Under the pieces are notes generated by a model, which saw nothing but the letters and a program-made list of their open reading frames with translations, did not search any database and was not told the origin of the DNA. This document shows positions 20,956 to 63,209 of a DNA stretch of 64,000 nt, one piece after another. How positions within the stretch are numbered: the first letter of the stretch is position 1; every line of letters starts with the position of its first letter. Source of the DNA: Fabrea salina (taxonomy: Eukaryota > Ciliophora > Heterotrichea > Heterotrichida > Fabreidae); contig JALIHJ010000009.1 in the NCBI GenBank assembly GCA_022984795.1, forward strand, positions 248,001 to 312,000, given 5' to 3'. The translations under genes and the position numbers were made by a program.

Positions 20956-21282
20956 CTATTTATACTTTTGTGTTTTGTGAGTTAAAAGGACTTCAGAGTG
21001 AGTTTTGTCAAAAACCTTCAAAGTGTAGGTTTTGTCTTCTTGGAACAGTGTAACTGGAGTTCCTTTGAGTTCTGTGAAAAACATCAGAGAACCATTAAAT
21101 TTGTGGAACTCGTACTCGTTTCTGGAGTTTACGACAACTTGCTTTCTTCCAGAAACTCTAGATATTATAAGGTCTATTTGGAACACTTCTGAGTCTACTT
21201 GCAACACCCAAGTGTGCATGAGTTTACTTGCTTTTAAATGTTTTCCTACTTTTCTGACTCTGTAGGCTTCTATAGTTTGCAT
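20956..21282 (-). CDS. Small beta-rich protein, FAIM-like
   Basis: 108 residues from the ATG at 21280-21282. HTWVLQVDSEVFQIDL, SGRKQVVVN and YTLKVFD suggest the beta-sandwich of FAIM (Fas apoptotic inhibitory molecule) and related ciliate proteins, in which a Trp-containing strand is followed by an ID[L]xxS[RK]xSG[KR] block. The match is by eye only. The ATG is 9 bp from the ATG of the divergent RBR gene, the tightest head-to-head pair along with 62705/62715. Confidence 0.55.
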   Translation of the reverse strand: MQTIEAYRVRKVGKHLKASKLMHTWVLQVDSEVFQIDLIISRVSGRKQVVVNSRNEYEFHKFNGSLMFFTELKGTPVTLFQEDKTYTLKVFDKTHSEVLLTHKTQKYK

Positions 21283-21291
21283 CAATTAAGT
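21283..21291. promoter_or_regulatory. 9-bp divergent spacer
   Basis: CAATTAAGT is all that separates two opposing start codons. Both 5' leaders and core promoter elements must be nearly absent or overlap coding sequence. Confidence 0.6.
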
Positions 21292-22635
21292 ATGGGGGCA
21301 AACCAAACCAGAAGTGCATCAGAGCCTTCGCTGCAGTCGAGTCCTGCTAACTCACTACTTACTAACGAGTACAACTCCAGTGTCCAGTCTTCAAGTAGAT
21401 CCCAGTCTTCACCTGATGTATTTTTAAGCTTTGCAAGTCCTGAGATAGATTTAGAACCCCACTTAGGAATTATTTCTAACTCGCATTTATCAAACATTCC
21501 TTCTCAGAGATCTTTGAACTTCAGGTCTGTTTGCTCTTCAGGGATTGGTTTTGAAGTTCACTCCAGTCCTGTTATTTGCCTTATTTGTCAGTCAGAACTA
21601 AACGAAGTCAACAAAGTGCAGGTTCCTGTTTGTTCACACAACTTCTGCCAAGATTGCATCAGAACTTACTTAGAAATACGCATTACAGAGTCCCAAGTGG
21701 ACCCAATGCCTTGTCCTGAACACAGCTGTGGAGTGGACATACAAGAAGAATTCATCAGTATGTTGATTCCAGAAGAACTTTTCTTGAAGTTCAAAAAGTT
21801 CCAAAAAGCCCAGAGCCTTAACAAAAACCCTAACTTGCGCTGGTGTCCCAAACCCGACTGCGAAGGTTGGGACAAAGGCAACATGCAAAGCAGAGAACTC
21901 ACTTGTAACCAGTGCGGGTTTAAGTTTTGCTACTACTGCCAAGAGCCTTGGCACGGAAACTCCAAGTGCAGAGCTCAGGTAGACTTTGCGCTTGACAAGT
22001 ACAGCAAAAAAAACAACGTTAAGCAGTGCCCCCAGTGCAGAAGACGAGTTGAAAAGAACCAAGGCTGCGACCACATGACCTGCCCAGCTTGCAGGTATGA
22101 GTGGTGCTGGCTCTGTGGAGAGCCCTACATGGTAGGTCACTTCGAAAACTGTGAAGGCAAAAAGATACTGAGGAAGTACCCTCCACTCTGGGTAGTTTTA
22201 GGTCTTACCTTTTCCCCAATACTACTGCCCTTCGGAGTAGTTATTTTGGCTTGCTTTTGGATTGAAAACATGATAAATGAATGGCACCTTCCAGGTTCTC
22301 CTTTCCACAGGTTCCTAACCAACAAGTGGCTTTCTTACCCCTGTGCTATCTTAGTAGGGCTTCTTTTAACACCTATAGTGTTTGCCCTTGCACCCTTTGT
22401 TTTGGGCGTGATGGCTACTAGAGAGATACTTGACCAGTTCCAAACTTGCGGGGAGCTCTTTGGAGTAGTGGTACTTGGGATTCTGTTGTCGCCTTTAGTG
22501 GTTGTTTCAGCAGTTGTGTTTTTGTTGGTTGCACAGTTAATGGGGGTCGGGTACCTGGTTCTAAGGGTTTACGTGCACTTGAGGAGGTGTTGGGACCCTA
22601 ACTACATGGTGCCTCCAAGTTATGTTAGGTTTTAA
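21292..22635 (+). CDS. RBR (RING-IBR-RING) E3 ubiquitin ligase, membrane anchored
   Basis: 447 residues from ATG 21292. The MGANQ start would allow N-myristoylation. RING1 at about 96-145 (CLICQSE, CSHNFCQDC), IBR at about 170-226 (WCPKPDC, CNQCGFKFCYYCQ) and RING2 at about 246-287 (CPQCRRRVEKNQGCDHMTC, CWLC). The catalytic thioester Cys in the GC-D-H-M motif (about Cys259) is present. The C-terminal 150 residues contain three or four hydrophobic segments, as in the RNF19 type. So it should transfer ubiquitin through a Cys intermediate at a membrane. Confidence 0.93.
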   Translation: MGANQTRSASEPSLQSSPANSLLTNEYNSSVQSSSRSQSSPDVFLSFASPEIDLEPHLGIISNSHLSNIPSQRSLNFRSVCSSGIGFEVHSSPVICLICQSELNEVNKVQVPVCSHNFCQDCIRTYLEIRITESQVDPMPCPEHSCGVDIQEEFISMLIPEELFLKFKKFQKAQSLNKNPNLRWCPKPDCEGWDKGNMQSRELTCNQCGFKFCYYCQEPWHGNSKCRAQVDFALDKYSKKNNVKQCPQCRRRVEKNQGCDHMTCPACRYEWCWLCGEPYMVGHFENCEGKKILRKYPPLWVVLGLTFSPILLPFGVVILACFWIENMINEWHLPGSPFHRFLTNKWLSYPCAILVGLLLTPIVFALAPFVLGVMATREILDQFQTCGELFGVVVLGILLSPLVVVSAVVFLLVAQLMGVGYLVLRVYVHLRRCWDPNYMVPPSYVRF

Positions 22636-22644
22636 TGTAATCAT

Positions 22645-25485: not shown

Positions 25486-25549
25486 CCTTAGTAATTAACT
25501 TATTTAGCGAACTTGAAGGTGCCAGTGTTCGATTGAATGCTGGACTCAG

Positions 25550-25565
25550 TAGTTTAGCTAAACTA
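25550..25565. other. 16-nt perfect palindrome between convergent genes
   Basis: TAGTTTAGCTAAACTA reads the same on both strands. The same 102-bp spacer also has AACCCT and AGGGTT arms 8 nt apart at its right edge, reaching into the kinase stop region. This could form cruciforms or serve as a 3'-end signal; unproven. Confidence 0.3.
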
Positions 25566-25587: not shown

Positions 25588-26890
25588 TTAAACTTTAGGG
25601 TTACAGTGGTTGGTTTTACGTCGCAGGTCTTTTATTACACTTGGAATTTCTATTAGTCTACTTGAAACACTATTGCTTGCTAAACTTTTGGCTCTCCTCC
25701 TCGAAGAAGGAATCATTTGGAGTAGCCAGGGGTGCCTGAGAGCTTCGAAACTAGAGAGTCTCTTGCTGGGGTTAGGTTGAGTCAGTTCTTTCACCATACT
25801 TTTAGCTAAGCTGGACACACCTCTCCAGTTCTCTTCTTCAAAAACTAACTTGCATCTCTCGTTTTTCCTAAGTACTTCTTCTGGGTCCTCTCCTTTGAAG
25901 GGAGAAGTCCCACTGAGCAGGCTAAACAGAACCACTCCAGCACTGAACATGTCAACCTTAGAATCATACCTCTTGTCTTTGAGCATTTCGGGAGCTACAT
26001 ATCCGGGAGACCCGCATTTATCTAGCATTGACTTGCTTTTGGTACTGCAGGCCAGACCAAGGTCTCCAATTTTAAGGTCAGAGTCTACAGTTATAAACAA
26101 GTTCTCAAGTTTAATGTCTCTGTGAACGTAATTATTGGAGTGCATGTACCTCAATCCAGCAAGGAGCCTGTAAATTAACTTAGCAGCTTCTTCTTCTGAG
26201 AAAGCGCCTCTCTCTATAATCCTTTGGAACAAGTCTTTGCCTCCTACATACTCTAAAACCAAGTACACGTAGTCGTTACTTTCGTATATAGTGTGCAGCT
26301 TGACTATATACTCACTCTTTAAGTCCCTCATTACCTTTATTTCGTCAATCAATCTTTCGACACCATTCTTGCTTTTCTTGAGTTTTCTTTTGAGAATCTG
26401 TTTGACAGCATAGTCCTTTGCATCTCTCAAACCTTTAGTGAAGTAGACTTTTGCAAAACTACCCTCTCCGATTTTTTCGAGTAACTTAAACTCTTCTTCG
26501 ATCTCGGTGAGTATGCAAACTCTGGATAAGGCATCAAGCCAGTTATTTAGAGTTTGCTCATCTTCAGTATAGAACTCTTGGTAGTTGTTTTGATTTCCCA
26601 AGCGGAACCCATATCTCGTTTTTAGGTGGTTGGTTTCTTGAAAAGGCTCTAATAGTTTCCACTGAATTGCAGCCATGAGTTTAGGCGTAGAGTGGGAGTT
26701 TAGGCAGAAAATAGAGCTTTGGGTCAGGTGAAAGGTTCTACTTCTTAAACTTGAATTCTGGTAAGGGAAGGTAGAGCACTGACTTGAGTAAGCTAAGTTT
26801 TTCAAGTGCTCTTCTAGAGATGCCTTCACAGGGGCTCCAGAATTCTCTGGAAATTTTGCTGGCATCTACTTTACTGAATATACTTTCCAT
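25588..26890 (-). pseudogene. PH-like domain + kinase (family member 6) with +1 frameshift
   Basis: The family-type start MESIFSKVDASK is at 26888-26890 and runs through FW and SVLYLPLPEFKFKK to a TAG at 26738-26740. Skipping one base there continues RTFHLTQSSIFCL and the rest of the protein without interruption, so the whole locus is one gene with one extra base relative to its kin. The kinase part is perfect: GEGSFA loop, YAVK, HRDIKLEN, DLG, CGSPGYVAPE, HPWLLQM. The junction reads AAG-TAG-A. It may be recent decay, an assembly error or +1 frameshifting. A downstream in-frame ATG could still give a kinase without most of the PH part. Confidence 0.8.
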
Positions 26891-26907
26891 TAAAAGCTAT
26901 TATTAGT
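26891..26907. promoter_or_regulatory. 17-bp divergent spacer
   Basis: This A/T-rich stretch (TAAAAGCTATTATTAGT) lies between the start codons of kinase members 6 and 7. Confidence 0.5.
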
Positions 26908-28077
26908 ATGTTAATATCTAGTTCAATTTTTTTATCGCCCTTTCCTCAAACTGATTTGTTTTGGGAGTTTCCTCAGGAAGATAAAGCAATAGATCAAGTC
27001 CAAGAAAAACGGATTCACTTAGGTACCCTCTACAACTCCCAGCATCGAACGGAATTCTTGCTTACTGAGTCAAACCTTTATTGGGTAAACGTCCACAAAA
27101 AAGTTGAAAAGTTCTGCAGGGTTAAGTGGCTGTTTGTGTTTCCTTTTGCTGAAGAAAACTTCTTTGGCTTCACATTGTTCTATGGAAACACAAGCCAGGA
27201 CTTCTACACTCGTGATGCAGAGCAACTTGAAATTTGGATAGATGCCCTTAGTAAAGTGTGCATTCTCACAAATATATCAGAAGACTTACAAGAAGTCATA
27301 GAACTCTCAAGAGGAGTTCTCTCAAGAACTACTCTGAGGAAAAATATTTCCGGGCAGAACTTTGCAGTCAAGTCCTTTGCTAAATCTGGAAACTTGGGGA
27401 ACTTTGAGAGACTCAAGAACCAAATAGAAATAATGAGACAAATTAACCACCCTAACTTTGTAAAACTACACAGTGTCTATGAAAGCCGCAACTATGTCCA
27501 TTTAGTTCAGGATTACTTAGAAGGTCAAGACTTATTTCAAAAAGTTGTTAATGAAGGACCTCTTCCTGAGGAAGAGGCTGCAAAAACTATGAAGCAAGTT
27601 CTGGAGTGCATAATTTACCTAAATTCTTTGAACATAGCTCACAGAGACATTAAACTAGAAAATGTATTTTTACTCAGTCAAAATGTCTATCAAATAAAGT
27701 TATTGAACTTAGGGTTAGCTTGCAAAGACATCCACGAAGGTCAAACTGAAAAATGTGGATCTCCGGGCTACATTGCTCCCGAAATACTCAAAGGAGAACC
27801 CTATTACTCTAAAGTAGATGTATTCAGTGCAGGCATTTTGCTATATATTCTACTTTCAGGAGAAATGCCTTTCAGAGTGGATAATATTCAAGAAACACTA
27901 CTTAAAAACCAAGAAGCACAACTTAACTTTGATTCTTGCGCAAGCAATTTGGGAAGTGCTATTGACTTAGTGACTAAAATGACTCTAAGGAACCCCAGTG
28001 AGAGACTTTCAGCCCAAGAAGCTTTAGAGCACCCTTGGATTCAGCAACTGAACTCACTAAACGATTCTTCGCTCTAA
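26908..28077 (+). CDS. PH-like domain + probable pseudokinase (family member 7)
   Basis: 389 residues. PH-like domain with FFGFTLF, QDFYTRD, VCILTNIS. In the kinase domain the glycine loop is lost (ELSRGVLSRTT), FAVK and HRDIKLEN are kept, but DFG reads NLG, so the Asp that binds the ATP magnesium is Asn. CGSPGYIAPE and HPWIQQL are normal. The frame is intact over its whole length, so this looks like a maintained pseudokinase rather than a decayed gene. It may act as a scaffold or regulator for the active kin next to it (inferred). It is followed 9 bp later by member 8. Confidence 0.85.
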   Translation: MLISSSIFLSPFPQTDLFWEFPQEDKAIDQVQEKRIHLGTLYNSQHRTEFLLTESNLYWVNVHKKVEKFCRVKWLFVFPFAEENFFGFTLFYGNTSQDFYTRDAEQLEIWIDALSKVCILTNISEDLQEVIELSRGVLSRTTLRKNISGQNFAVKSFAKSGNLGNFERLKNQIEIMRQINHPNFVKLHSVYESRNYVHLVQDYLEGQDLFQKVVNEGPLPEEEAAKTMKQVLECIIYLNSLNIAHRDIKLENVFLLSQNVYQIKLLNLGLACKDIHEGQTEKCGSPGYIAPEILKGEPYYSKVDVFSAGILLYILLSGEMPFRVDNIQETLLKNQEAQLNFDSCASNLGSAIDLVTKMTLRNPSERLSAQEALEHPWIQQLNSLNDSSL

Positions 28078-28086
28078 TACTCATAA

Positions 28087-29361
28087 ATGGAATCATTGTT
28101 TAAATCTACTGACACCGAAGAAAATCCTGGAAGAACCTTTTGGGTACCAGTGAAAGACAAATCGAAAAAGCAACTCAAAAAGCGCAGAATTCTGAAATCG
28201 ACCTTGCACTTACTTACAGCTGCAGGTAGTTACAAACAGCGAACTATAGTTCTTACTTCTTCTCATTTGTATTACGTCAGTTCTAAAAACCAAGTAACTA
28301 AGTTCACTAAAATAAACTGGAAACTACTTGAAGCTTTCCAAGAACCTCAAAACAAAAAAAAGTGTGGGTTCAAACTAAGCAACCAAGTTTCACACCAAGT
28401 GTTCTACACAAGGAACTCTAAGCAGCAAAGCAAGTGGGTAGATGCCCTGAGTCGTTTGTGTATCAACAAAGACTTTGAACTGGACTACCAAGTTCTTGAG
28501 AAGCTAGGGTGTGGAAACTTCGCTTGTGTGAATCTTGTCAGAGAAATTAAAACTTCCAAAATCTACGCTGTAAAGTCAGTCTCCAAAAGAATTCTTCGAA
28601 TCGAAAACTGCGAAAAAAACCTACTAGACGAGATCTTAACCATGAAGAAGCTAGACCACCCAAACATCCCTAAACTTCACAAAGTATACGAAAGTTACTC
28701 AGAAGTTCACTTAATAACTGACTACGTGGAAGGCGGAACTTGTTTTCAGAGACTCCACAAAAAAGGCCCATTCTCCGAGGAATCTGCAGCTAAACTAGTT
28801 TACATTCTGCTAGAAACACTTGACTACATGCACTCTAAAAACATCGCCCACAGAGACATCAAAGCAGAAAACATACTTATGTGTGCTCCAAACAACTATG
28901 AAATCAAACTCATAGACTTCGGACTAGTCTGCAGAAGCATCCACAAAGGAAGCACTGAAAGGTGCGGATCCCCCGGTTACGTTGCCCCTGAGGTCCTTAA
29001 AGGACTCAAGTACGGACCCAAAGTAGATGTTTTCAGTACAGGAATTCTTCTGTACATACTTTTAAGCGGAGTAAGTCCTTTTGGAAAGCTAAGTGTCGAA
29101 AAAATGCTGGCTGCGAACCTCAAATGCGACATAAAGTTCCCTGAAGAGCTTTGGGGCGGAATTTCAATGCTGGGAAAAGACATTGTGATGCAGCTTACTA
29201 ACCCTGACCCTTTAAAAAGGCCCTCAGCTTCTGAAGCTTTGCAGCATCCCTGGTTTGAACTCCTTGTGCCTCCTTACTTCACTTTGTTTTTGCAAAATGG
29301 CTTCAAAACTTCATTTCCAGGGAGCCCTAGAACAGGCTCTTTCGAAGGTTATTGTTTATAA
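28087..29361 (+). CDS. PH-like domain + Ser/Thr kinase (family member 8)
   Basis: 424 residues, starting MESLFKSTDTEE. PH-like domain (STLHLLTA, CGFKLSNQ, QVFYTRN), then kinase with GCGNFA loop, YAVK, HRDIKAEN, DFG, CGSPGYVAPE and HPWFELL; a 30-residue Phe/Ser/Gly-rich tail. It appears active. It starts 9 bp after the pseudokinase stop on the same strand, so co-transcription is possible. It is convergent with member 9, 7 bp between stops. Confidence 0.9.
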   Translation: MESLFKSTDTEENPGRTFWVPVKDKSKKQLKKRRILKSTLHLLTAAGSYKQRTIVLTSSHLYYVSSKNQVTKFTKINWKLLEAFQEPQNKKKCGFKLSNQVSHQVFYTRNSKQQSKWVDALSRLCINKDFELDYQVLEKLGCGNFACVNLVREIKTSKIYAVKSVSKRILRIENCEKNLLDEILTMKKLDHPNIPKLHKVYESYSEVHLITDYVEGGTCFQRLHKKGPFSEESAAKLVYILLETLDYMHSKNIAHRDIKAENILMCAPNNYEIKLIDFGLVCRSIHKGSTERCGSPGYVAPEVLKGLKYGPKVDVFSTGILLYILLSGVSPFGKLSVEKMLAANLKCDIKFPEELWGGISMLGKDIVMQLTNPDPLKRPSASEALQHPWFELLVPPYFTLFLQNGFKTSFPGSPRTGSFEGYCL

Positions 29362-29368
29362 TTAAGAG

Positions 29369-30493: not shown

Positions 30494-30569
30494 GTTTGGA
30501 TTATATTTATAATCTTATATTATCCATTATGCATCTATAGTAGTATTGTACTAATAGTTTACAAAAAAT

Positions 30570-40457: not shown

Positions 40458-40889
40458 TTACTTTTTTCCTAGAATTTGGTCAACTTGGGTTTTCCACCTC
40501 AAGTGTGGTGCTTCGGGCAGTGGAGTGCTGCCTTTGAGTTGTCTTGACTGCTGGGGCACAGTTGAAGCTCTGTCAATTCTGACTTCAGGCCTGGACTGAG
40601 TGTTGAGTGCGTCCTGAACTTTAGTCATGAATTCCCTGACTCTTTCTATTTCCTGTTTAACTGGGTGGTGACTTAAGTCTTTGCCGTGTGTTCTTAAAAG
40701 TGAATAGTACACTGAATACAAAGTGTAGGCCAGTCCTGTGTTTAGCCTTAAAGCTTCTTCGCTTAAGAGTTGAGAATTGAGTTCTGAAAGCGACTCGTAC
40801 TGGAAAAGGGGTTCTAAGTGTTTGGAGATTTCGGACAAACAGTTTTCTAGTTCCTGGAGTTTAAGTGTTATATCTTGGGACTCAGACAT
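40458..40889 (-). CDS. C1D: C1D/Rrp47-like exosome cofactor (Sas10/C1D family)
   Basis: 143 residues from ATG 40887-40889; the frame is open further upstream but that part is antisense to the importin start. The Sas10/C1D core is at about 5-100: LNTGLAYTLYSVYYSLLRTHG and HPVKQEIERVREFM are the family's two best blocks. C1D recruits the nuclear exosome subunit Rrp6 in rRNA processing. The basic tail fits RNA binding. It is divergent from the importin gene with 18 bp between ATGs. Confidence 0.88.
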   Translation of the reverse strand: MSESQDITLKLQELENCLSEISKHLEPLFQYESLSELNSQLLSEEALRLNTGLAYTLYSVYYSLLRTHGKDLSHHPVKQEIERVREFMTKVQDALNTQSRPEVRIDRASTVPQQSRQLKGSTPLPEAPHLRWKTQVDQILGKK

Positions 40890-40907
40890 AAGTTTATGGA
40901 TATATAA
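40890..40907. promoter_or_regulatory. 18-bp divergent spacer
   Basis: Spacer between the C1D and importin start codons. It contains TATATAA directly before the plus-strand ATG and TTTAT near the other. Confidence 0.5.
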
Positions 40908-43900
40908 ATGTCTAACCAAATTGCTGAGCTTCTCAAAGTCACTTACACTTCGAGCAACAACACCCAAAGAGAAGAAGCTGAAAGTCAGTTGAAAGAACAC
41001 AGCCGGGACGTCAGTGGGTTTTTCCAATCCTTGCTGGGCTTAATAACAGACCCTTCCTCCGACAACCTGCAAAAAAATGCGGCTGCAACACGCTTACGCC
41101 AGTTCACTAGAGAGTGCGTGGAGGGGTCTGTGTTTTCCAGTGAAGACAGAACAGCCGTTTCCGAACAACTCTACAGAGCAGTGACTTCAGAAAACCTCGA
41201 AAGGAACGTAAGGGTGGTGGTAGCTTACTCGCTGAACCCAATAATCAGTGAAGACTCTATGGGAGTAACTTCAAGCACACTTGCCAACCTAGCAAGGCAA
41301 GGACTGGCAGGAAGCAAAGCTACAATCCAAGGGAGTTTGTTGGTAATCAAAAACATCTTTGCGTGTATGTCTCCTCAGTTTTCAGTGGGAGACTACTTCA
41401 GAGGAGTTATGCCAGACATCATACAAATGGGGAAAAGGGCGTGGAGTGCACTGGGAGAACCAGAGATTTTAGAGATCCTAGAAGACTGGTCAGGAGCTAT
41501 CAAACAAATTCTGGAACACTTTGAAATCACTTCTAGCAGGGCTCTTAAAGAGTTTGTAGACTACCATGAAATGGCTGTTTTGCTAGGAGAAATTCTCAAC
41601 TACAAAGTGCAAGACCCACTGCTTCAAGAGCCCTCGACCATTGCTGTGTCGGAGAACTACTCGCTCCTCAACACAGTAAAGACTAACCTTTTGGCTTCTT
41701 TGAACATAATCCTCCAACACATGATAGACAACAAAAAGAAAACTCTAGAAGAACAGGGAACGGTTCCTAAAGTAATCAACATGATCGGAGCTGACCTTCC
41801 AGACTCTCCTTACGCAACTGCAGTAGGCACCATTCTCGAACCCTTCATTAACTCAGTTATCCTAATCGCAAGTCTCAGTAGCCACTCCGAACTCTATTCA
41901 AAGCAGTTCGTTTCTGAGTTAGTGATAGAGTCCTACAGTTTACTTACCAAAGCTTGCGGAGAAAACAGGTTTTACGCTTTGTTTGCAAAGCACGCTAGGT
42001 CTTTGGAGGTAACTGTTTGTTTGAACTCGCTCAAAGTTACACAACAAGACCTTGGGACACTTGAAAGTTCCCCAGAGGAGTTTGTGAATGTGACTATGGA
42101 CGTTTGCGAAAGACAAGAGTCCAGGACTCTAAAAACCACGGCAGCCCAACTTCTGGAGTCTATTTGCGACAACATTGACGGAAGTCTGGCTTACGAGTTT
42201 TACTTCGTAGTTGAACTGCTTGACCAAGTTTTTTCACAAAACACCAACTTAAACACTTACCCTCACCTAAGTGAGTGGGTAGGCAGCAACATTCTGCAGT
42301 CTTCAGGCGAACAAAAAGTAGACGTGAGTTTAGTTGTTCTTTCGATTCTGTCCTACAGTGTAAGCAAAAGACCTGACCTTCTCAAACTGCTCGAAAAGCT
42401 TCTGAAAAACTACGTAGACTTAATCAGCAGTTCTGCCAGTTCTTTAATCCACAACCGCTTTTGCTTGGTGCTTTACTTCTACCTAGAGTACATTTTCCCA
42501 GAGGACAGAGAAACCTTTGGCAAGTGGATTTTCTACCTCATTAACTGCTTAGACCCTTCCAGAGTGCATAGAGTGGCTTTGATCCAAGCCTGCGAGTCGT
42601 TCACTTACCTAGTGCAAGACGATGAAATCATGTTTAGAATGGAGCCTTTTGTTACTGAAGTAATAGGTTACGTGCTGCAGGTGCTTCCTCACCAAAACGA
42701 CAAGTACTTCTTTGAAGCAGTCCAGGAACTCGTCCAAAGGTACACCTCCGAAATCACCCAGCACATACCCCTGATCATCAACTCAGTGACTCAAAAGATC
42801 CAAAGTGCAGTTCAGAACCCTTCCCAAGAAGGGTCTTTGGTTTTGGCTAAGTGCTGGAACATCATTAAAACCATCACTGACTCTTTGCAAGTGAACACTT
42901 ACTTGCAGGACTTCGAAAAACTACTTACTCCGCTTTTCAGCTTTTTGCAAGACCCCAACACTATCAACTTCGAAGACGACATAGTAATGGTTATCCTTAA
43001 CCTAATCAGGAAGACCCAAACCATTTCAGAAGTGCAGTGGCAAGTTTTTGACGTGCTGAAGAACCTCCAAGACAAACAAAAGGGCTGTTTGGGGATTCTT
43101 TTCAGACTAGTTAACTTGTACGTTGTGTACGGAAGAGAACAACTCCAGGACAGCCCAGCTCGTCTTGGCCTTCTAGTTGAAATGGCAGAAAAGGCCCTTT
43201 ACGCCAAACCCAAACAAGTCTTCAAAGAGTCCTGCAACTCAGACGGGGCTGTGCTGCTGCAACTGTTGCTTTACAACTTCCCAGGCTTCATGGACAACTT
43301 TTTAGAAAAGATCTTGTCAGACACACTGATAAGGTACACACAAGGAGTAGACAACGGGTTTTTAAAAGTAAGGCTTTTGGGAGTAGTTGAAGCTGCTTTT
43401 ACCAACAACGTTGTGTTAACTGTGCAAATTCTTTCAAGGAGCACTAATTCCCAAGGAGTTTCTTTCCTTAGGTATGCTTTGCTAGAAATCATCCAGAACT
43501 CTTACTTAGTTGTGCACTCTTACGACAAACGCGTTGCAGTCTACGGACTTTGCGAACTCATAGCTCAGCAAAACTTGCCTGGCGACGTTTCAGAAATACT
43601 TAACTCAGTGTTTGAAGCTACGATTCTCATACTGAGTTGCAAAACTGACTCAACTCAAGAAGGCAAAAACAAAACGAAAATAGACGCACTCATAGACGAG
43701 TTGATTGAAAACGAGTCCGATGAGGAAATGCTTGACTCCGAAATCATGGTTAAAGGAACCCGAATGGGCTACGGAAAAGACCAGGTCTTCAGTGGCAGGA
43801 ACGAAGAAACTGAGTCCAACATCACCCTTTCACAACTCAAATCTCCGATAGTGGAAATGGACGAGTACGAACACTTTAAAAAAGTTATGAACAACTCACT

Positions 43901-44063
43901 CCAGACAAGTCCACAAGTAACCAGTGCCTTGGTAGAGGGCCTTTCTCAAGAAAGGAAACAACAACTCGTTGACATCTTAAAAAGCAAAAGGATTTCCTTC
44001 GAAAACGTCCCAGGCGAAAACTCCACAGTCAGGAGAATTGTAAAACCCAAGTCAAGACAGTAA
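40908..44063 (+). CDS. Importin-beta family nuclear transport receptor (importin-7/8-like)
   Basis: 1051 residues of HEAT repeats. The N-terminal importin-beta domain (about 22-95: REEAESQLKE, NLQKNAAATRLRQF) is the Ran-binding start of the karyopherin family. A late acidic stretch (about 925-945: DELIENESDEEMLDSE) recalls the acidic loop of importin-7/8. It should carry cargo into the nucleus under control of RanGTP. The exact subfamily is inferred. Full length and without breaks, no intron found. Confidence 0.87.
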   Translation: MSNQIAELLKVTYTSSNNTQREEAESQLKEHSRDVSGFFQSLLGLITDPSSDNLQKNAAATRLRQFTRECVEGSVFSSEDRTAVSEQLYRAVTSENLERNVRVVVAYSLNPIISEDSMGVTSSTLANLARQGLAGSKATIQGSLLVIKNIFACMSPQFSVGDYFRGVMPDIIQMGKRAWSALGEPEILEILEDWSGAIKQILEHFEITSSRALKEFVDYHEMAVLLGEILNYKVQDPLLQEPSTIAVSENYSLLNTVKTNLLASLNIILQHMIDNKKKTLEEQGTVPKVINMIGADLPDSPYATAVGTILEPFINSVILIASLSSHSELYSKQFVSELVIESYSLLTKACGENRFYALFAKHARSLEVTVCLNSLKVTQQDLGTLESSPEEFVNVTMDVCERQESRTLKTTAAQLLESICDNIDGSLAYEFYFVVELLDQVFSQNTNLNTYPHLSEWVGSNILQSSGEQKVDVSLVVLSILSYSVSKRPDLLKLLEKLLKNYVDLISSSASSLIHNRFCLVLYFYLEYIFPEDRETFGKWIFYLINCLDPSRVHRVALIQACESFTYLVQDDEIMFRMEPFVTEVIGYVLQVLPHQNDKYFFEAVQELVQRYTSEITQHIPLIINSVTQKIQSAVQNPSQEGSLVLAKCWNIIKTITDSLQVNTYLQDFEKLLTPLFSFLQDPNTINFEDDIVMVILNLIRKTQTISEVQWQVFDVLKNLQDKQKGCLGILFRLVNLYVVYGREQLQDSPARLGLLVEMAEKALYAKPKQVFKESCNSDGAVLLQLLLYNFPGFMDNFLEKILSDTLIRYTQGVDNGFLKVRLLGVVEAAFTNNVVLTVQILSRSTNSQGVSFLRYALLEIIQNSYLVVHSYDKRVAVYGLCELIAQQNLPGDVSEILNSVFEATILILSCKTDSTQEGKNKTKIDALIDELIENESDEEMLDSEIMVKGTRMGYGKDQVFSGRNEETESNITLSQLKSPIVEMDEYEHFKKVMNNSLQTSPQVTSALVEGLSQERKQQLVDILKSKRISFENVPGENSTVRRIVKPKSRQ

Positions 44064-47885: not shown

Positions 47886-48809
47886 TTAGTAACTATCAGT
47901 AAACCCCAACTCATCAATGTACTTTTTAGAACAAACACCTTCACAGAGTTTGTATCTATACTTGAAGAAGAGTTTGTAGTGAGTTCGGATTAAAGACTCC
48001 TCGAACTCAAGCTCTGTGGCTTCAGCTATTTCTTTAAGACTCAGTCGGAGTGCTCTGCTCATGTAAGCAAAAGCGTACACTAGACTAGCAGCCATGCACA
48101 GTTCGTCAAAAACCTCATTTTGAATTATTTGGGGAACTCTAGCCAGCACTTTTTTGCAACTGTTGCTGATGATAGACCCCAGCCCTAGTTTAAACCCCAG
48201 AACACTTATGTAGTTAATTCCTGACGAACAGTTGTTTTCCAAAGGAAAAAACTTAACGGCAACTTTAAAAAAGTTCAGCACCTTCTTAGCCTCAGCCCCA
48301 CACACTGAAAGTATCCTCCTTGCGGTGACAGGGACTCCAAACCTCCGACAGACTATTAAAATCAAAGCACTAATTACAGCTTCGTGCGGACGTGAACGGG
48401 TCAGCTTTTCTTCACAAACCTTTTTAAACATTTTCATAGCTTCAAAAACCACTTCTTCTTTCAGTCCCAAAATCGTTCCGAATTCCTTTAAACTATTGAA
48501 GCCCCTTGAAAATGTTTCATTTTTGGAAAAAAGAGTTTTATTCAAGGTCCATTTGGGCAAGGAAGAGTACTTGGCATGAATGAAAGTCCCCAGTCCTTGG
48601 TCTGACAAAAGAGTGTTGTTTGATGTTCCTGCTCGGCGAGTGTCAGTTAGTCCAATTTCACTGCACTCGTTGTTTGCGTAACTTGCTTCTAAAGACTCGT
48701 CTATGAGTTTAACTGCTGCCACAAGGCCACAGTTTTTGCACACCAGTGTGCCTTCGCTTTGGTCTACTACTAAGTAGTATTTGCAGTTGGAACAAGTCTG
48801 TTCAATCAT
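47886..48809 (-). CDS. Divergent TFIIB-like factor
   Basis: 307 residues from MIEQTCSNCK (ATG 48807-48809). It has a zinc ribbon with CSNCKYY and CKNCG, then two cyclin folds. A short block LSDQGLGTFI is shared with the TFIIB at 12601 (LLSDSGLATYI there), so it is a TFIIB and not Brf or TFB-like. The cyclin folds are strongly diverged (for example around HEAVISALIL). It may serve a promoter subset or life stage (inferred). It is divergent from MPC2, 17 bp between ATGs. Confidence 0.85.
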   Translation of the reverse strand: MIEQTCSNCKYYLVVDQSEGTLVCKNCGLVAAVKLIDESLEASYANNECSEIGLTDTRRAGTSNNTLLSDQGLGTFIHAKYSSLPKWTLNKTLFSKNETFSRGFNSLKEFGTILGLKEEVVFEAMKMFKKVCEEKLTRSRPHEAVISALILIVCRRFGVPVTARRILSVCGAEAKKVLNFFKVAVKFFPLENNCSSGINYISVLGFKLGLGSIISNSCKKVLARVPQIIQNEVFDELCMAASLVYAFAYMSRALRLSLKEIAEATELEFEESLIRTHYKLFFKYRYKLCEGVCSKKYIDELGFTDSY

Positions 48810-48826
48810 TATTGGCCCCCTTATAA
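48810..48826. promoter_or_regulatory. 17-bp divergent spacer
   Basis: Spacer between the TFIIB-like and MPC2 start codons. It has a GGCCCCC block followed by TTATAA against the plus-strand ATG. Confidence 0.5.
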
Positions 48827-49168
48827 ATGGCATTTGGAGTAGTGCCTAAGTTGCAACACTGGGTATTGGCAAAATACAACTGGTCGCCAAGAATGAGGTC
48901 TTTGTTGACGCACCCAGCAGGGCCCTTTACAATTCACTTTTGGTGTCCGATGGTGAAGTGGTGCATAGTTATTGCTAACATTTCAGACCTGAACATACCG
49001 CCTGAAAACATTTCTACAGGGCAGCAGATTGCTGTGACGGGGACAGGGTTTGTGTGGGCGCGGTACTGCACCCAAATCATTCCTAAGAACTGGAACCTGT
49101 TGCTAGTTAACTTCTTTATGGGCTGCACTGGGTTCTACCAACTGTTGAGGAAGTGGACTGCTAAGTAA
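48827..49168 (+). CDS. MPC2: Mitochondrial pyruvate carrier subunit MPC2
   Basis: 113 residues. The family blocks are clear: LLTHPAGPFTIHFWCPMVKW, TGTGFVWARYC and IIPKNWNLLLVNFF, the last being typical of MPC2. Two or three TM segments. With MPC1 it forms the inner-membrane pyruvate importer; no MPC1 is in this window. The TMEM39 gene starts 10 bp after the stop. Confidence 0.94.
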   Translation: MAFGVVPKLQHWVLAKYNWSPRMRSLLTHPAGPFTIHFWCPMVKWCIVIANISDLNIPPENISTGQQIAVTGTGFVWARYCTQIIPKNWNLLLVNFFMGCTGFYQLLRKWTAK

Positions 49169-54800: not shown

Positions 54801-55588
54801 TTTATTTATTTGTTATGTTATCAAGCCCTTGGGCCTTTTTAAAGTTACAGTGAGAGGGGTTTGCTTCGCGGGTCCTTTGTTTCGCTTGCATTTCCTCTTC
54901 TTCCGAGCACAGTCGTTTGGGTTTTTTGTGTTTGTTGTTTGTCTGGTGTCCATTTTTGTGCTTCTGGGTAGTTGAGGTTCTTTCTGTTTTTGTGAGAGAT
55001 TCCTTCTTTGTTTTCTTGTGTCCAGTCTTGTTTCTTCGAAAGTTGTTTGGGCTTTGTCCCGTTTTGTCTTTTCTTCAACCATAATTGGTTCTTCATCGTC
55101 CAGGTTTCTCGTGATTGCATCGAACAATTTGTCTTCTTTGCTTTTTTCAGTGAGAGTTTCCTTGGTCTTTCTTTGTGGATTTTTTGTTGCGAGCTCCATG
55201 TCTTCATCCGGGTTCTCTTCCGTATTTAGCTCTAGGAGTACTTCCAGGTCCGAGTCTTCTTCTGAGTCTAGGTCTGTGTCTTCTTTCCAGCTTAGGTAAG
55301 AATCTATATCTGAGTCTGAGTTCTCCTCGAAGTCTGAGTCTTCGCTCCATTGGTCGTCTGAGTATTGCTCCTCTTCAGTTAAGGTCACAGAGCCCCGGAG
55401 GCTCCTGTGCTTTCTTAAGGTGTCTAGGAAGTTAGCGAAGTAATCGCAGCCTTTTGGCCTTTCTGTGCTTTCGTCATCTGATGATTCTGAGTACATCATT
55501 TGATCCGTTATTTTTTTGATGTGATACTTCAGTGTTGACTTGTCTATTGTTAGGAAATTCGGGTCCCCTATCAAGTGTCTACCTTCGG
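54801..55588 (-). mobile_element. 5'-truncated LINE-like element, copy D of family 2
   Basis: About 788 bp, minus strand, with the A/T tail at the left. The open frame for the acidic/basic protein tail is the same as in copy C, and copy D extends about 33 bp further at its 5' end (codons for GDPNFLTIDKST). The two copies differ in their tails and 5' ends but I see no change in the shared part, so at least one is very recent. The insertion left the NadD gene with a complete short upstream region because the target-site duplication copied it. Confidence 0.87.
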
Positions 55589-56220: not shown

Positions 56221-56223
56221 ATA

Positions 56224-57723
56224 CTAACCCTTCAGTACTTTAATTATCTTTAAAGAAGTCACAGGGAAGCCGTTTTCTCTGAGTTTCGAGTTCAAAAGCA
56301 CAGTTCTTGCTGAGTTAAACCCATCCTCTTTGGAAAAGCTAAAGCACCTAACAGCTAAGTTGTGCAGTAGGGGCTTCATCTTGTCCAAGTGGTTTTGGAA
56401 CTCTGGAGAAAAGTTGCTTTTGCTCAAAAAACACTGCGGAAGCCCAGAAGTTTCAAGACAAACCTTCAGGTTTTCGATTTGCCGAGGAGTCAGCTGTAGC
56501 AAAAAAACTACGTCTTGCATGATTTCTGTTCTGCCTTGAGCAACTTTTCCAGAGTTGTCGTCTAAGATTACACAGGCTTTGATGTTGAAACTTACTTCTT
56601 CAGAGCTGCAGTTAAAGCACTGGTAGTCCACTCCTCTAGAGTTCTTTTTGCAGTAAGTGCAGATGTACTCCAGAGTCACAGAAAGGACTTTTCTAACCAG
56701 TGCCTTGATCTTCATAATGCTCCGAACTAGTATAGAGTCCGAAACGTCCCTTAAGTAGTACACAGGGTAGAACCTTTTCGTGTGAACAAACTGCAGTCCG
56801 TGCAAAGAGTACTTATAGTTGACCTTGTACATGCCCAGTCCAGGCTCCTCCAAAAACTTGCAAGGACACCACTCCCAACCGCAGGGCTCTTTGTGGACTT
56901 TAACAACTTTGATGTTTTCCTTCCTCGAGAAGTACTTAATTCTGCAAAAAATGTTCATGCTCTGAGTCACTTTCCTTGCAGCCTCCGTAATTTTAACAGT
57001 GTTGAAGGAACTTAGCATTTCTTCCACTTTCTTCTCTTCATAAGAAACGTACACATAAATAGTGTCGTTGGTTTCGATGTCTCTCAACCTGACATGGACT
57101 TTCTTAGTTCCCTGTTCGCTAGTGAACTCAGTTTCAAGAACCACCCCTACAAAACTAACAGTGTCCTTGAAGCAAACGATGTCTTCTATTGGCACCCTTC
57201 CGTTTTGGTTTGCCACTCCTGCAAAGTTTATGTTTAAAAGTGGAGAAATCGAAGACTCCCGCGCTATCATTTGCGAAAACACTGAGTAAGGATTTGCTTT
57301 TTTAGCCATCATCACAGGAGTGTCAGCGTTGCTTCTAAAGGGAGACTTGGGCACCATAGGTATAGCCGTGATAGTGGTGTTTCTAGTAACTGCAAAGTTC
57401 ACAACAGGTTGTCTTTTGGTGCGGCCAGGCCGTACAATAAGTTTGTTAATTCTGATTTTTTCGCCTAAAGAAATCTGGGCTAGTTCCTGGTAGCAAGTAA
57501 AGTTTTCTCTAACGAGGACCTTTACTGAGTAGTTCTCATAAGTTAGTTTTATTGCTGAAAGGTACTTAGGGTCGTTGCTTTTGCTGTACTTAGAAAAGAC
57601 TCCCTCCAAAACGTACTTGCCCGAGTAAGCCTTGATGTTTTCAAGTTTGCCTTCTCTAAGGAAACTCGAGCAGGACTCAAATACTGCAAGCCCGCTTTGG
57701 GCGTCTTCACTCAAGTCGTTCAT
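56224..57723 (-). CDS. RPA1-like OB-fold protein, divergent
   Basis: 499 residues. Tandem OB folds are suggested by strands at about 25-110, 165-265 and 290-440. The last contains a zinc ribbon CTYCKKNSRGVDYQCFNC (C-x2-C-x10-C-x2-C), as in the DBD-C domain of replication protein A 70 kDa. RPA70 binds single-stranded DNA in replication and repair. The product is shorter than typical RPA70 (about 600) and lacks the N-terminal protein-interaction OB fold, so it could be a specialised paralogue (telomere or meiosis). Divergent from EI24, 14 bp between ATGs. Confidence 0.6.
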   Translation of the reverse strand: MNDLSEDAQSGLAVFESCSSFLREGKLENIKAYSGKYVLEGVFSKYSKSNDPKYLSAIKLTYENYSVKVLVRENFTCYQELAQISLGEKIRINKLIVRPGRTKRQPVVNFAVTRNTTITAIPMVPKSPFRSNADTPVMMAKKANPYSVFSQMIARESSISPLLNINFAGVANQNGRVPIEDIVCFKDTVSFVGVVLETEFTSEQGTKKVHVRLRDIETNDTIYVYVSYEEKKVEEMLSSFNTVKITEAARKVTQSMNIFCRIKYFSRKENIKVVKVHKEPCGWEWCPCKFLEEPGLGMYKVNYKYSLHGLQFVHTKRFYPVYYLRDVSDSILVRSIMKIKALVRKVLSVTLEYICTYCKKNSRGVDYQCFNCSSEEVSFNIKACVILDDNSGKVAQGRTEIMQDVVFLLQLTPRQIENLKVCLETSGLPQCFLSKSNFSPEFQNHLDKMKPLLHNLAVRCFSFSKEDGFNSARTVLLNSKLRENGFPVTSLKIIKVLKG

Positions 57724-57737
57724 ATTTTAGTCGATAA
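57724..57737. promoter_or_regulatory. 14-bp divergent spacer
   Basis: ATTTTAGTCGATAA lies between the RPA1-like and EI24 start codons. ATAA abuts the plus-strand ATG. Confidence 0.5.
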
Positions 57738-58505
57738 ATGTGGGTTTCTGAATTAGCTAAAGGAATCAAGGACAGCGTAAACTACAAAAGGGCTTTTGAG
57801 TTGCTAATGGCCAGACAAGAAGTGCACAAACCTATAATGCTGAGTTCTTGGCTTACTGGGGGGGTTTTTTTGGGGTCTTTAGTTTGTTACTGGTACTTAT
57901 TGGACCCAGTGTTCCAGGCCTTTCCTAAGTTCCACCAAGCTTTTTACACGCTATACTACGTGCTTTGGGTGTTTCCAGTTTACTTTGTGTGTTTTGTTCT
58001 GAATAGTTTTTGCTACTCTGACATCGCCTACAGTGTTTTCACTCTTCTTCACGGCCAAACTAGATCACCAGACTTGTCTTTTTCGAGAAAAATAGCTTAC
58101 GAAGTCCACAGAGGCCTGATCATGGGAGTTTACTTGCTGGGACTGAGTGTGCTTTCTTTGTTTCCCTACACAGAACCCATTACGCTCTTTTTGTTGAGTC
58201 TTTTGTACTCTTTTTACTGCTTTGAGTACAGGTGGGTTTTGGAGGGAAAAACTGTGAACAAAGGAATTTCCGTTTTGGAAAGAAACGTGCCTTACTACTT
58301 CGGGTTTGGACTTCCCTTTACACTCATGACATGTTTTTTTCCAGGGTTCATCGGCAATGGAGTTTGGGCTTTGCTGTTCCCTGTGTTTATAGTGACTTCT
58401 CTGGACTCTGACCCTCCCCAAGTTTCCCAGTTCCCTAGGGTTCCTTTGTTCAAGTTCGCGCATAAACTATGCAGTAAAATAGAAATTCTTTTACTAGGTA
58501 AATAA
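57738..58505 (+). CDS. EI24: EI24/EPG-4-family ER membrane protein
   Basis: 255 residues with about six TM segments. LNSFCYSDIAYSVF and FEYRWVLEGKTVNKGISVLE, followed by NVPYYFGFGLPFTLMTCFFP, are the EI24 core. EI24/EPG-4 acts at the ER in autophagosome formation. Complete, with no breaks. Confidence 0.9.
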   Translation: MWVSELAKGIKDSVNYKRAFELLMARQEVHKPIMLSSWLTGGVFLGSLVCYWYLLDPVFQAFPKFHQAFYTLYYVLWVFPVYFVCFVLNSFCYSDIAYSVFTLLHGQTRSPDLSFSRKIAYEVHRGLIMGVYLLGLSVLSLFPYTEPITLFLLSLLYSFYCFEYRWVLEGKTVNKGISVLERNVPYYFGFGLPFTLMTCFFPGFIGNGVWALLFPVFIVTSLDSDPPQVSQFPRVPLFKFAHKLCSKIEILLLGK

Positions 58506-60478: not shown

Positions 60479-60604
60479 GAGTAATTTAAACTGTATGGAG
60501 CAGTTGTACCGAGTACGAAATACCCAGCGTTCGAGCTCCCTCCGCTTTGGCTCGGGTCCTTAGTCACGCACTGCAACTCAGGACCTGAGACATTTTTATA
60601 ACTA
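60479..60604. other. Spacer with clustered inverted repeats, possible structured RNA
   Basis: 126 bp between same-strand genes, richer in G/C than other spacers here. Arms seen: AACTG/CAGTT (7-nt loop), GTAC-CGA-GTAC, CGAGC/GCTCG, and CTCAGG-A-CCTGAG near the right end, plus AGTTG/CAACT that could enclose most of it. GTTCGAG resembles a tRNA T loop but no arm set closes into a tRNA. ACATTT follows the last hairpin, as in an H/ACA tail. A small non-coding RNA is possible. Confidence 0.3.
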
Positions 60605-62026: not shown

Positions 62027-62027
62027 C

Positions 62028-62705
62028 TTAAATGCATCTGGACTTTTTTGTTTTGAATTGGGCTTGGATGCCATTTTGCACTCTCTGCAAGTCAGCAGAA
62101 AGCCACTTGAGCATGTTGGGATTAGAAAGGACTAGTTTCTGGTATTCGTTTTTGGTGATGTACTCTCCCTCAGAGTCACTTTTGTAACTTAAAGTTTCAA
62201 AAGTTTTTTCAATGATGGCTTCAATCTGAGTGGGGTTTAGGTTCAAACCAGTGTTTTGCCGAATTCCAGACTCGAGTATGCGTTTGATGTCTTTGGTGTG
62301 GACTTTGCCAGAGTTCTTGATGTCGAGCATTCGGAAGGAAACGTCAATTTGTTCTTTAAGCAAGGATGTTCTTAAAGTTTCAGATTCTTGAGACTTTTCT
62401 TTTTCCTCCATGAAAGTACTCAGTCCAAGCAAAAACTCCCGGAAATTTATTACTCCGTCGTCGTTGGTGTCGAACATCTTGAAAATCCGTTCTGCAACCA
62501 AAGAAGTGGACGCGTTTCTTAAGTTCAAACAAAACTCAGAATAGTCTATAACTCCGTCGTCCCTTTCTGACGAAGAAAACTTGTAAAAGTAATAATACAG
62601 TTGCTCAACAGTCTTTTCCGGAAACAAAGACTGTCTTGAAAACTCTTGAATCTCTGATTGTTTCAACTGGGGAACTTGCTTAGGTTTACTTGCCTGTTTG
62701 CCCAT
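62028..62705 (-). CDS. EF-hand calcium sensor, calcineurin-B-like
   Basis: 225 residues. The MGKQASK start suits N-myristoylation. One canonical EF loop, DTNDDGVINFRE at about 79-90. A degenerate earlier one (SERDDGVIDYSE, 46-57) and a later one (DIKNSGKVHTKD) have weaker ligand sets. The overall layout is like calcineurin B/CHP or CBL proteins. A membrane-linked calcium switch is likely. Convergent with the RING gene, 1 bp between stops. Confidence 0.82.
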   Translation of the reverse strand: MGKQASKPKQVPQLKQSEIQEFSRQSLFPEKTVEQLYYYFYKFSSSERDDGVIDYSEFCLNLRNASTSLVAERIFKMFDTNDDGVINFREFLLGLSTFMEEKEKSQESETLRTSLLKEQIDVSFRMLDIKNSGKVHTKDIKRILESGIRQNTGLNLNPTQIEAIIEKTFETLSYKSDSEGEYITKNEYQKLVLSNPNMLKWLSADLQRVQNGIQAQFKTKKSRCI

Positions 62706-62714
62706 TTACTATAA
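62706..62714. promoter_or_regulatory. 9-bp divergent spacer
   Basis: TTACTATAA separates the EF-hand and unknown-protein start codons. CTATAA abuts the plus-strand ATG. Confidence 0.6.
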
Positions 62715-63209
62715 ATGTCAGATAGTAGTTTCAAACTTAAAGTAGCTAACCCTGAATGCAGGCTCAGTGCTACTTTCATATGGAGAGAAAACACCCACTT
62801 CCGAATGGACTCTGCAACTTACCTTATCTTTTTTGAAATCAAGTTCAGAGAGAACCCCCACAACGAAATTGTGCACAGACTGAGTCAAACTGTAAAGTCA
62901 CTTTCTAATGAAATGCATCACAAAACCTTCATTCCAAACAACGACCACTTACTGAAAATTTCAGAAGAAGGCTCCAACTACAAGTTCTTTATAGACCACG
63001 GAGACAGCATGACCTTGCCTTCACAATTCACTCTCCAAATTCCTTTTAAGGGGGAGTCACACTACAGTTTGGTAAACTATGTTTCGGAAGAACTTTTAAG
63101 CAGGAACAATCTGCAGGACTGCAACCACCCCTCAATTAAGTACATCAAGTTTGGAGTTTCCCACCACATCAAAAACATTGAAGGCTCTATAAAGTATGAG
63201 TTTAGGTAA
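62715..63209 (+). CDS. Protein of unknown function
   Basis: 164 residues, without signal peptide or TM. Alternating beta and short helical stretches with several His (EMHHKTF, VSHHIKNI). No family recognised. The SDR gene starts 11 bp after its stop on the same strand. Confidence 0.5.
   Translation: MSDSSFKLKVANPECRLSATFIWRENTHFRMDSATYLIFFEIKFRENPHNEIVHRLSQTVKSLSNEMHHKTFIPNNDHLLKISEEGSNYKFFIDHGDSMTLPSQFTLQIPFKGESHYSLVNYVSEELLSRNNLQDCNHPSIKYIKFGVSHHIKNIEGSIKYEFR

What the first reader, a model, noticed from the sequence alone, without database searches (positions are those of the whole stretch)
21280..62717. Divergent start codons only 9-18 bp apart
Five head-to-head pairs have 9 bp (21282/21292 and 62705/62715), 14 bp (57723/57738), 17 bp (48809/48827) and 18 bp (40889/40908) between ATGs; 26890/26908 also has 17 bp. 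There is no room for two core promoters and two 5' UTRs. Either transcripts are nearly leaderless, or promoters lie in the opposing coding sequence. TATAA-like sequence often touches the ATG.
Basis: seen in the sequence. Interest (0 to 1): 0.75.

Follow-up and report, generated by a model that had tools for sequence, protein, structure and literature searches.

The report
Near-touching gene starts in compact ciliate
Neighbouring genes that point away from each other begin only 9 to 18 DNA letters apart; this is real and common in the sampled parts of a very tightly packed ciliate genome, so each messenger RNA probably has almost no leader, but only mapping the RNA ends can show that.

Summary
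In detail: all six ATG pairs lie where stated, with 9, 9, 14, 17, 17 and 18 bases between. They are not special loci. In 314 kb sampled, 17 of 62 divergent neighbours start within 20 bp or overlap.

The genome is a heterotrich ciliate macronucleus: CCCTAACA telomeres, 15-nt introns, Blepharisma relatives, 18.3 Mb. This fits the published "extremely streamlined" Fabrea salina genome (size recalled; paper not held).

Homology fixes two starts: MPC M1 in 11 of 11 and EF-hand M1 in 19 of 19 aligned sequences. Pair 26890/26908 has a broken minus frame.

TATAA is enriched in the last 15 nt before starts (47 of 173; about 20 in shuffles; 4 of 1251 internal ATGs), not at -15 to -60. The neighbour's first codons show no AT or TATA excess. 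Best reading: initiation in an ATG-adjacent AT-rich element, leaders of 0-20 nt. Initiation inside the opposing gene is not excluded. No 5' ends were measured.

The parts
20956..21282 (-). 108-aa ORF, start 21282; no family found
   Evidence: no Pfam hit up to E 1; only chance-level PDB hits, E 0.32 and 0.35; coding score 0.37, first 20 codons 0.30, second Met at codon 21
21283..21291 (.). 9-bp gap between divergent ATGs, no TATAA in the 15 nt before either ATG
21292..22635 (+). RBR-type (IBR/RING) protein, start 21292 preferred over the overlapping 21238
   Evidence: Pfam IBR; first 20 codons from 21238 score -0.07
25588..26890 (-). protein kinase whose N-terminal frame from 26890 is broken as assembled; the longest ORF starts at 26865 in another frame
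   Evidence: Pfam kinase for 25588-26865
26891..26907 (.). 17-bp gap, no TATAA in the 15 nt before either ATG
26908..28077 (+). protein kinase paralogue, start 26908
   Evidence: Pfam, paralogue alignment
40458..40889 (-). Sas10/Utp3/C1D-family protein, domain begins at residue 11; next Met at codon 87
40890..40907 (.). 18-bp gap containing TATATAA next to the + ATG
40908..44063 (+). importin-7-like protein, 1051 aa; next Met at codon 117
   Evidence: PDB match to importin 7 (6n88, E 2.8e-16) over residues 469-1024; second Met. Importin N-terminal domain only at E 0.24, not significant
47886..48809 (-). TFIIB-like protein (zinc ribbon plus one recognised TFIIB repeat), start 48809 preferred over 48833
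48810..48826 (.). 17-bp gap with TTATAA touching the + ATG
48827..49168 (+). mitochondrial pyruvate carrier (MPC2-like), start fixed by homology
   Evidence: Pfam MPC; M1 invariant in 11 of 11 aligned sequences: the query and 10 of its 12 hits
56224..57723 (-). 499-aa ORF, no family found; next Met at codon 122
   Evidence: no Pfam hit at 0.001, one insignificant at E 0.23, no PDB hit at 0.1
57724..57737 (.). 14-bp gap ending GATAA before the + ATG
57738..58505 (+). EI24/CysZ-family membrane protein, domain from residue 17; next Met at codon 23
62028..62705 (-). EF-hand protein starting MG, start fixed by homology
   Evidence: M1 invariant in 19 of 19 sequences (the query and 18 of its 20 hits), G2 in at least 90%
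62706..62714 (.). 9-bp gap TTACTATAA
62715..63209 (+). 164-aa protein of unknown family
   Evidence: one homologue only, 99% identical, on a 1266-bp contig; coding score 0.35, second Met at codon 30

Best explanation
The window is part of a very compact macronuclear chromosome of a heterotrich ciliate, most likely Fabrea salina or a close relative. Genes sit almost end to end. Each gene carries its own AT-rich initiation element, often TATAA-like, in the 5-15 nt just before the ATG. RNA polymerase II, recruited by a canonical TBP and TFIIB, starts in or next to that element, so mRNAs have leaders of about 0-20 nt. Where two genes diverge with 9-18 bp between ATGs, the two elements share or overlap the same few bases. 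Both pre-initiation complexes must then cover the other gene's first codons and cannot occupy one DNA copy at once. In a polyploid macronucleus this is tolerable, because different copies can fire in different directions.

Shown: spacing, its frequency in 314 kb, start-codon conservation at two starts, motif position, canonical TBP. Inferred: transcription start positions, leader lengths, mutual exclusion, role of polyploidy (macronuclear polyploidy is general knowledge of ciliates, not tested here).
For: Pairs exact. 17 of 62 divergent gaps are 20 bp or less, with medians of 16 (61 convergent), 26 (115 tandem) and 70 (62 divergent). MPC and EF-hand starts are conserved. TATAA in the last 15 nt: 47 of 173 against 20.3 in shuffles, 4 of 1251 before internal ATGs, 18 of 173 after stops; most common at -5. 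No TATAA enrichment in the 15-nt bins from -15 to -60. Start-proximal TATAA in close divergent (10 of 31), far divergent over 100 bp (10 of 51) and tandem genes (28 of 108). AT content climbs slowly from 0.60 to 0.65 at -30, then to 0.70 and 0.82 in the last two 10-nt bins. TBP matches a solved TBP (1tgh) at E 1.4e-83. Ciliate precedents: Paramecium Cap-Seq 5' UTR median 19 nt (PMC5485702 passages) and Halteria about 18 bp in one class of chromosomes, about 10 bp in the paper's conclusion (PMC7858049 passages). Giardia shows an AT-rich consensus at -5 to +5 of the start site and, in some cases, initiation in both directions from one nucleotide between adjacent genes (PMC3792122 passages).
Against: No transcript data for this organism. 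TATAA is present at only about a quarter of starts, and at 3 of the 12 starts of the six pairs. A-rich sequence before ATG also serves translation initiation. With a canonical TBP, a TATA box 5-12 nt before the ATG would, at the usual spacing (recalled), put the start site inside the gene, so the element must act as an initiator or the start lies elsewhere. In Halteria the TATA-like box lies about 35 bp before the ATG, unlike here; Tetrahymena 5' UTRs have a median of 88 nt. TAA is most common at -3, in frame (48 of 222 against 30.8 expected), so part of the signal could be selection for an upstream stop codon. Other words are enriched further upstream: TTTAA at -60..-45 (15 against 5.7), TAATAA at -30..-15 (6 against 2.1), TATAAA at -60..-45 (4 against 1.4), TCTAGA at -70..-30 (9 of 90, 0.9 expected) and, inside the neighbour of close pairs, CTTTTT at -60..-25 (7 of 31, 1.2 expected). 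Many words were tested and these were not followed up. The Giardia paper itself suggests that transcription thought to be bidirectional may be unidirectional.
Confidence: 0.6

Rival explanations
1. Promoters and the 5' parts of the leaders lie inside the opposing gene. Each transcript starts some 20-60 nt upstream in the neighbour's coding sequence, so the two 5' UTRs overlap as antisense. The ATG-adjacent A/T-rich sequence is mainly a translation-start context.
For: A Paramecium-like 19-nt median leader would already start inside the partner at every gap of 9-18 bp. TBP is canonical and would usually need about 30 bp between TATA and start (recalled). The Paramecium review says regulatory capacity appears moved into the gene body (PMC12716044 passages). 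CTTTTT is over-represented in the neighbour at -60..-25 of close pairs (7 of 31, 1.2 expected; one of many words tested).
Against: Codons 2-21 of genes in close pairs are not AT-richer (0.569 against 0.586 and 0.591) and do not hold more TATA (0.16 against 0.16 and 0.15) than other genes. No TATAA enrichment at -15 to -60. The start-proximal TATAA exceeds base-composition shuffles.
Confidence: 0.27
2. The ATGs are mis-called and true starts lie further downstream in both genes, leaving a normal intergenic promoter.
For: Second in-frame ATGs exist at codons 21, 23 and 30 in three of the genes (20956-21282, 57738-58505, 62715-63209). The RBR and TFIIB ORFs have more than one candidate start. Of 38 gene starts in the 19 close pairs, the first 20 codons of 6 score below 0.10.
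Against: M1 conserved in 19 of 19 (EF-hand) and 11 of 11 (MPC) sequences. In many close pairs the next Met is 40-400 codons away, and the first 20 codons score 0.10 or more in 32 of 38. Introns of about 15 nt cannot create the missing room.
Confidence: 0.04
3. Transcription is polycistronic or trans-spliced, so individual genes need no promoter.
For: Tandem gaps are also tiny (median 26, 50 of 115 at 20 bp or less).
Against: Orientation changes at 123 of 238 neighbouring pairs, and divergent partners cannot share one transcript. TATAA is above shuffles before tandem starts at gaps of 25 bp or less (10 of 35, 4.8 expected) and over 60 bp (9 of 27, 2.8 expected), though barely at 26-60 bp (3 of 17, 2.1 expected).
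Confidence: 0.04
4. Assembly artefact.
For: The assembly has one frame break at 26890 and one in-frame TGA in a kinase.
Against: The same spacing occurs on three contigs. EF-hand and MPC sequences 97% and 99% identical exist on a 313,529-base contig held elsewhere, though that may be this same assembly.
Confidence: 0.02

Closest known systems
Fabrea salina macronuclear genome (Zhang et al. 2022, Mol Biol Evol msac062; not held, title seen in reference lists)
   Same: Heterotrich ciliate; the title says 'extremely streamlined'; size about 18.35 Mb (recalled) against 18.33 Mb here; probably the same species or assembly.
   Different: Identity not confirmed (18S search unanswered). Whether that paper treats divergent start spacing or start-proximal TATAA is unknown to me.
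Blepharisma stoltei macronuclear genome (PMC9942806, passages)
   Same: CCCTAACA telomeres, 15-16-bp introns, short intergenic and untranslated regions.
   Different: 41 Mb, 66% AT, TGA read as Trp; here 18.3 Mb, about 59% AT in the window, and TGA acts as a rare stop in several long ORFs.
Paramecium tetraurelia transcription units (PMC5485702, passages)
   Same: Compact ciliate macronucleus; 5' UTR median 19 nt by Cap-Seq; UTRs and genes sometimes overlap.
   Different: Different class. PMC12716044 could not find TFIIB there by similarity (passages); here several TFIIB-family genes are found.
Giardia lamblia AT-rich initiator transcription (PMC3792122, passages)
   Same: AT-rich element at the start site, most leaders under 20 nt, in some cases initiation in both directions within one symmetric element.
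   Different: Giardia TBP is highly divergent and lacks key phenylalanines (PMC12209930, start of abstract in the listing); TBP here is canonical. Start sites are not mapped here.
Halteria grandinella (PMC7858049, passages)
   Same: Ciliate with TATA-like motif and leaders of about 10-18 bp.
   Different: Mostly one gene per nanochromosome; in the class measured the TATA-like motif begins about 35 bp before the ATG, not 5-12. In 1,959 chromosomes the inferred start lies before the motif.

Membership tests
Heterotrich ciliate macronuclear chromosome | CCCTAACA telomere repeats | tested here: met
   (CCCTAACA)n at the starts of C48 and C59, the two contig ends looked at; the window itself has no contig end
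Heterotrich ciliate macronuclear chromosome | 15-nt GT-AG introns with A at position 10 | tested here: met
   two candidates, at 34994 (kinesin gene) and 18044, both with A at position 10; they bridge broken frames, no RNA evidence; rule from Stentor (PMC9505925 passages)
Heterotrich ciliate macronuclear chromosome | nearest named proteins from heterotrichs | tested here: inconclusive
   met for the EF-hand protein: Blepharisma stoltei is the only named eukaryote among 20 hits. Not shown for MPC: the 12 hits named an oomycete, Babesia and a plant, no ciliate
Fabrea salina | 18S rRNA identity | not tested
   searches gave no answer
Giardia-like AT-rich initiator | AT-rich element at the start codon | tested here: met
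Giardia-like AT-rich initiator | transcription start inside that element | not testable with these tools
   no 5'-end data
Giardia-like AT-rich initiator | divergent TBP | tested here: not met
   TBP matches a solved TBP (1tgh) over 177 residues, E 1.4e-83
Canonical TATA-box promoter about 30 bp upstream with separate leader | TATA enrichment 15-60 bp before the ATG | tested here: not met
   TATAA 4 of 173 at -30..-15 (7.6 expected), 5 at -45..-30 (6.0) and 5 at -60..-45 (5.3); the longer word TATAAA is 4 against 1.4 at -60..-45

The most novel reading that the evidence does not exclude
A single AT-rich element of 4-18 bp, bound by canonical TBP and one of several TFIIB paralogues, launches near-leaderless mRNAs in both directions. 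About a quarter of divergent pairs in this free-living eukaryote would then be run by promoters too small for two complexes, and this works because the macronucleus holds many copies, each firing one way at a time.
Probability: 0.2. Interest if true: 0.7.

Novelty: new member of a known kind. Interest (0 to 1): 0.42.

Why it matters
If the leaders really are 0-15 nt with a canonical TBP and TFIIB, this genome sets a practical lower limit for a eukaryotic promoter plus leader. It would also be a clean system for asking how two initiation complexes share fewer than 20 bp, how ribosomes start on almost leaderless capped mRNAs, and whether polyploidy permits such packing. The genomic compaction itself is already known for this group.

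Tried and rejected
Bacterial or parasite origin: rejected, since the genome is eukaryotic (TBP, TFIIB, kinesin, MPC), and relatives and telomeres point to heterotrich ciliates.

TGA as Trp (the Blepharisma code): not adopted. Several long ORFs end in TGA with little or no open frame after it (for example c59 13303-14463, c48 114031-115500). One kinase has an in-frame TGA with homologous continuation at 16186-16188, which speaks the other way.

A programmed +1 frameshift at the 26890 kinase: considered. A pseudogene or an assembly indel is simpler. No 14- to 17-nt GT-AG stretch exists on that strand between 26690 and 26800, only one of 13 nt.

Promoter inside the opposing gene: tested by base composition, no mark found, kept as the main rival.

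18S identification: four unanswered calls. TFIIA gamma: no Pfam match in the genome, but the same model also stayed below its cut-off in all 14 control genomes, the one match being an archaeon, and no eukaryote is named among those that rang; this does not show absence.

Gene-set limits: one search uses ATG-to-stop ORFs of at least 90 aa, overlaps over 60 bp removed greedily. keep those of at least 450 nt (174, one of them dropped for short upstream sequence). One search adds a coding-score filter that loses real genes such as MPC. One search uses 222 starts; divergent gaps of 26-100 bp are not in its three comparison groups. Introns were not modelled, so some gaps and starts are wrong.

In print: ten answered paper searches. 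In their listings and in the passages opened I saw no start-site mapping for a heterotrich; most listed papers were not opened. The Stentor and Fabrea genome papers are not held, so nothing can be said about what they report.
Full report
What was claimed and what is there. The six pairs exist exactly as written: ATG on both strands with 9, 17, 18, 17, 14 and 9 bases between. At 21292 and 48809 a longer ORF starts upstream and overlaps the partner. The minus frame from 26890 is broken as assembled, although its first 50 or so residues resemble the neighbouring kinase paralogues.

Where the window comes from. It is positions 248001-312000 of contig C92 in an 18,328,466-base, 103-contig genome. 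Contigs C48 and C59 begin with (CCCTAACA)n, the telomere repeat reported for Blepharisma (PMC9942806 passages). Two genes have 15-nt GT-AG stretches with A at position 10, at 34994 and 18044, the Stentor intron rule (PMC9505925 passages). The only named eukaryotic relatives of the EF-hand protein are from Blepharisma stoltei, 44-48% identical; the MPC search named no ciliate. Stops are mostly TAA (139 of 173), with 29 TAG and 5 TGA. I take it to be Fabrea salina or a close relative. That genome was published as "extremely streamlined" (title seen in reference lists); its size of 18.35 Mb is recalled, and the paper was not held. The 18S search did not complete.

How common it is. In the window and in 200 kb of C48, gaps of 20 bp or less (overlaps included) are 5 of 15 and 10 of 39 of divergent neighbours. 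With 50 kb of C59 and a coding-score filter they are 17 of 62; median gaps are 16 for 61 convergent, 26 for 115 tandem and 70 for 62 divergent neighbours. With both ORFs at least 150 aa it is 11 of 47. ORFs cover about 84-91% of the DNA in the three samples. The finding is therefore one face of general compaction in the 314 kb sampled, under 2% of the genome. Divergent gaps are still the longest class, as expected if starts need more room than ends.

Are the starts right? At 48827 the MPC start is conserved in 11 of 11 aligned sequences; two of the 12 hits were left out. At 62705 the EF-hand start is conserved in 19 of 19; two of the 20 hits were left out. At 40889 the Sas10/C1D domain begins at residue 11 and the next Met is at codon 87. 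At 40908 the importin-7-like protein has its next Met at codon 117; its N-terminal domain match is not significant (E 0.24). At 57738 the EI24 domain begins at residue 17 and the next Met is codon 23. The 62715 protein has a single, 99% identical homologue. For the ORFs starting at 21282 and 57723 no family was found. Across the 19 close pairs listed, the first 20 codons score 0.10 or more at 32 of 38 starts. Because an earlier start would only increase overlap, and a later one would cut conserved sequence, the spacing at the conserved starts is an upper limit.

Where is the promoter? The last 15 nt before starts are 78% A+T, against 57% before internal ATGs. TATAA occurs there in 47 of 173 starts, 20.3 +/- 4.1 expected from within-sequence shuffles, against 4 of 1251 internal ATGs and 18 of 173 stretches after stop codons. 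Column shuffles give 22.5 +/- 4.4, and there is no TATAA enrichment in the 15-nt bins between -15 and -60. TATAA starts most often at -5 (16 of 222, 7.0 expected). By spacing class the rate is 9 of 24, 5 of 15 and 11 of 54 for divergent and 10 of 35, 3 of 17 and 9 of 27 for tandem gaps of up to 25, 26-60 and over 60 bp; the 3 of 17 is close to its shuffle (2.1). First codons in close pairs are not AT-rich or TATA-rich. Other words were enriched and not followed up: AGTAA near starts (32 of 222, 10.6 expected), TCTAGA at -70..-30 of genes with room (9 of 90, 0.9 expected) and CTTTTT inside the neighbour of close pairs (7 of 31, 1.2 expected); TTTAA at -60..-45 (15 against 5.7), TAATAA at -30..-15 (6 against 2.1) and TATAAA at -60..-45 (4 against 1.4). 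Some of these could be real upstream elements, which would count against a purely start-proximal promoter.

Machinery. TBP is canonical (E 1.4e-83 to a solved TBP, 1tgh). The genome shows 11 TFIIB-repeat matches in six places (a lower bound), two of them in the window (12601-13515 and 47886-48809). One of the six is probably a Pol III Brf (inference). A canonical TBP bound at a box 5-12 nt before the ATG would place a start site inside the gene under usual spacing (recalled), so I read the element as an initiator in which or beside which transcription begins, as in Giardia. This step is inference.

Comparison. Paramecium has a Cap-Seq 5' UTR median of 19 nt. Halteria has about 18 bp in the class measured, with a TATA-like box about 35 bp before the ATG, and about 10 bp in the paper's conclusion. 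The Loxodes paper assumes short, tightly distributed 5' UTRs as in other ciliates; Tetrahymena is a counter-example at a median of 88 nt. Giardia has AT-rich initiators, some firing both ways from one nucleotide, though its authors suspect that transcription thought bidirectional may be unidirectional. The present case is of this kind, at the compact end, in a heterotrich with canonical TBP.

Verdict. What remains open, and worth one Cap-Seq experiment, is whether two complexes share one sub-20-bp element or start inside each other's genes.

Noticed in passing
window 12601-13515 (-) and 47886-48809 (-): Two TFIIB-family genes in one 64-kb window; the whole genome shows at least 11 TFIIB-repeat matches in six places, while a Paramecium review could not detect TFIIB by similarity. 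The 47886 protein shows only one recognised repeat.
   Followed up: partly
window and C48, around stop codons: TAATTA is enriched around stops (51 of 173 against 9.8 expected), and column frequencies suggest TAA-N-TAA-TTA; it could be a 3'-end signal overlapping the stop codon. Five of 54 convergent neighbours overlap by exactly 4 bases.
   Followed up: no
window 25588-26890 (-): Kinase with a paralogue-like N-terminus and a frame break near an AAGAAGTAGA stretch; pseudogene, assembly indel or frameshift not resolved.
   Followed up: partly
window 15886-17109 (+): Kinase paralogue interrupted by an in-frame TGA (16186-16188), with homologous sequence continuing after it.
   Followed up: partly
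window 6807-9252, 25588-31805, 46573-47832: Eight related protein kinases aligned, with a shared N-terminal region.
   Followed up: partly
window 45815-46177 and 54845-55207 (-): Two 120-aa ORFs with the same length, start and flanks 9 kb apart, apparently a repeated element.
   Followed up: no
window 9200-10003 (+): ORF reading like the C-terminal part of a non-LTR retrotransposon (impression from the translation, no search made).
   Followed up: no
window 18005-19292 (+): The gene called from 18351 probably begins further upstream, joined by a 15-nt intron at 18044; ORF-based starts therefore mislead at some loci.
   Followed up: partly
upstream of starts with room, -70..-30: The palindrome TCTAGA occurs in 9 of 90 starts against 0.9 expected; possibly a factor-binding site.
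   Followed up: no
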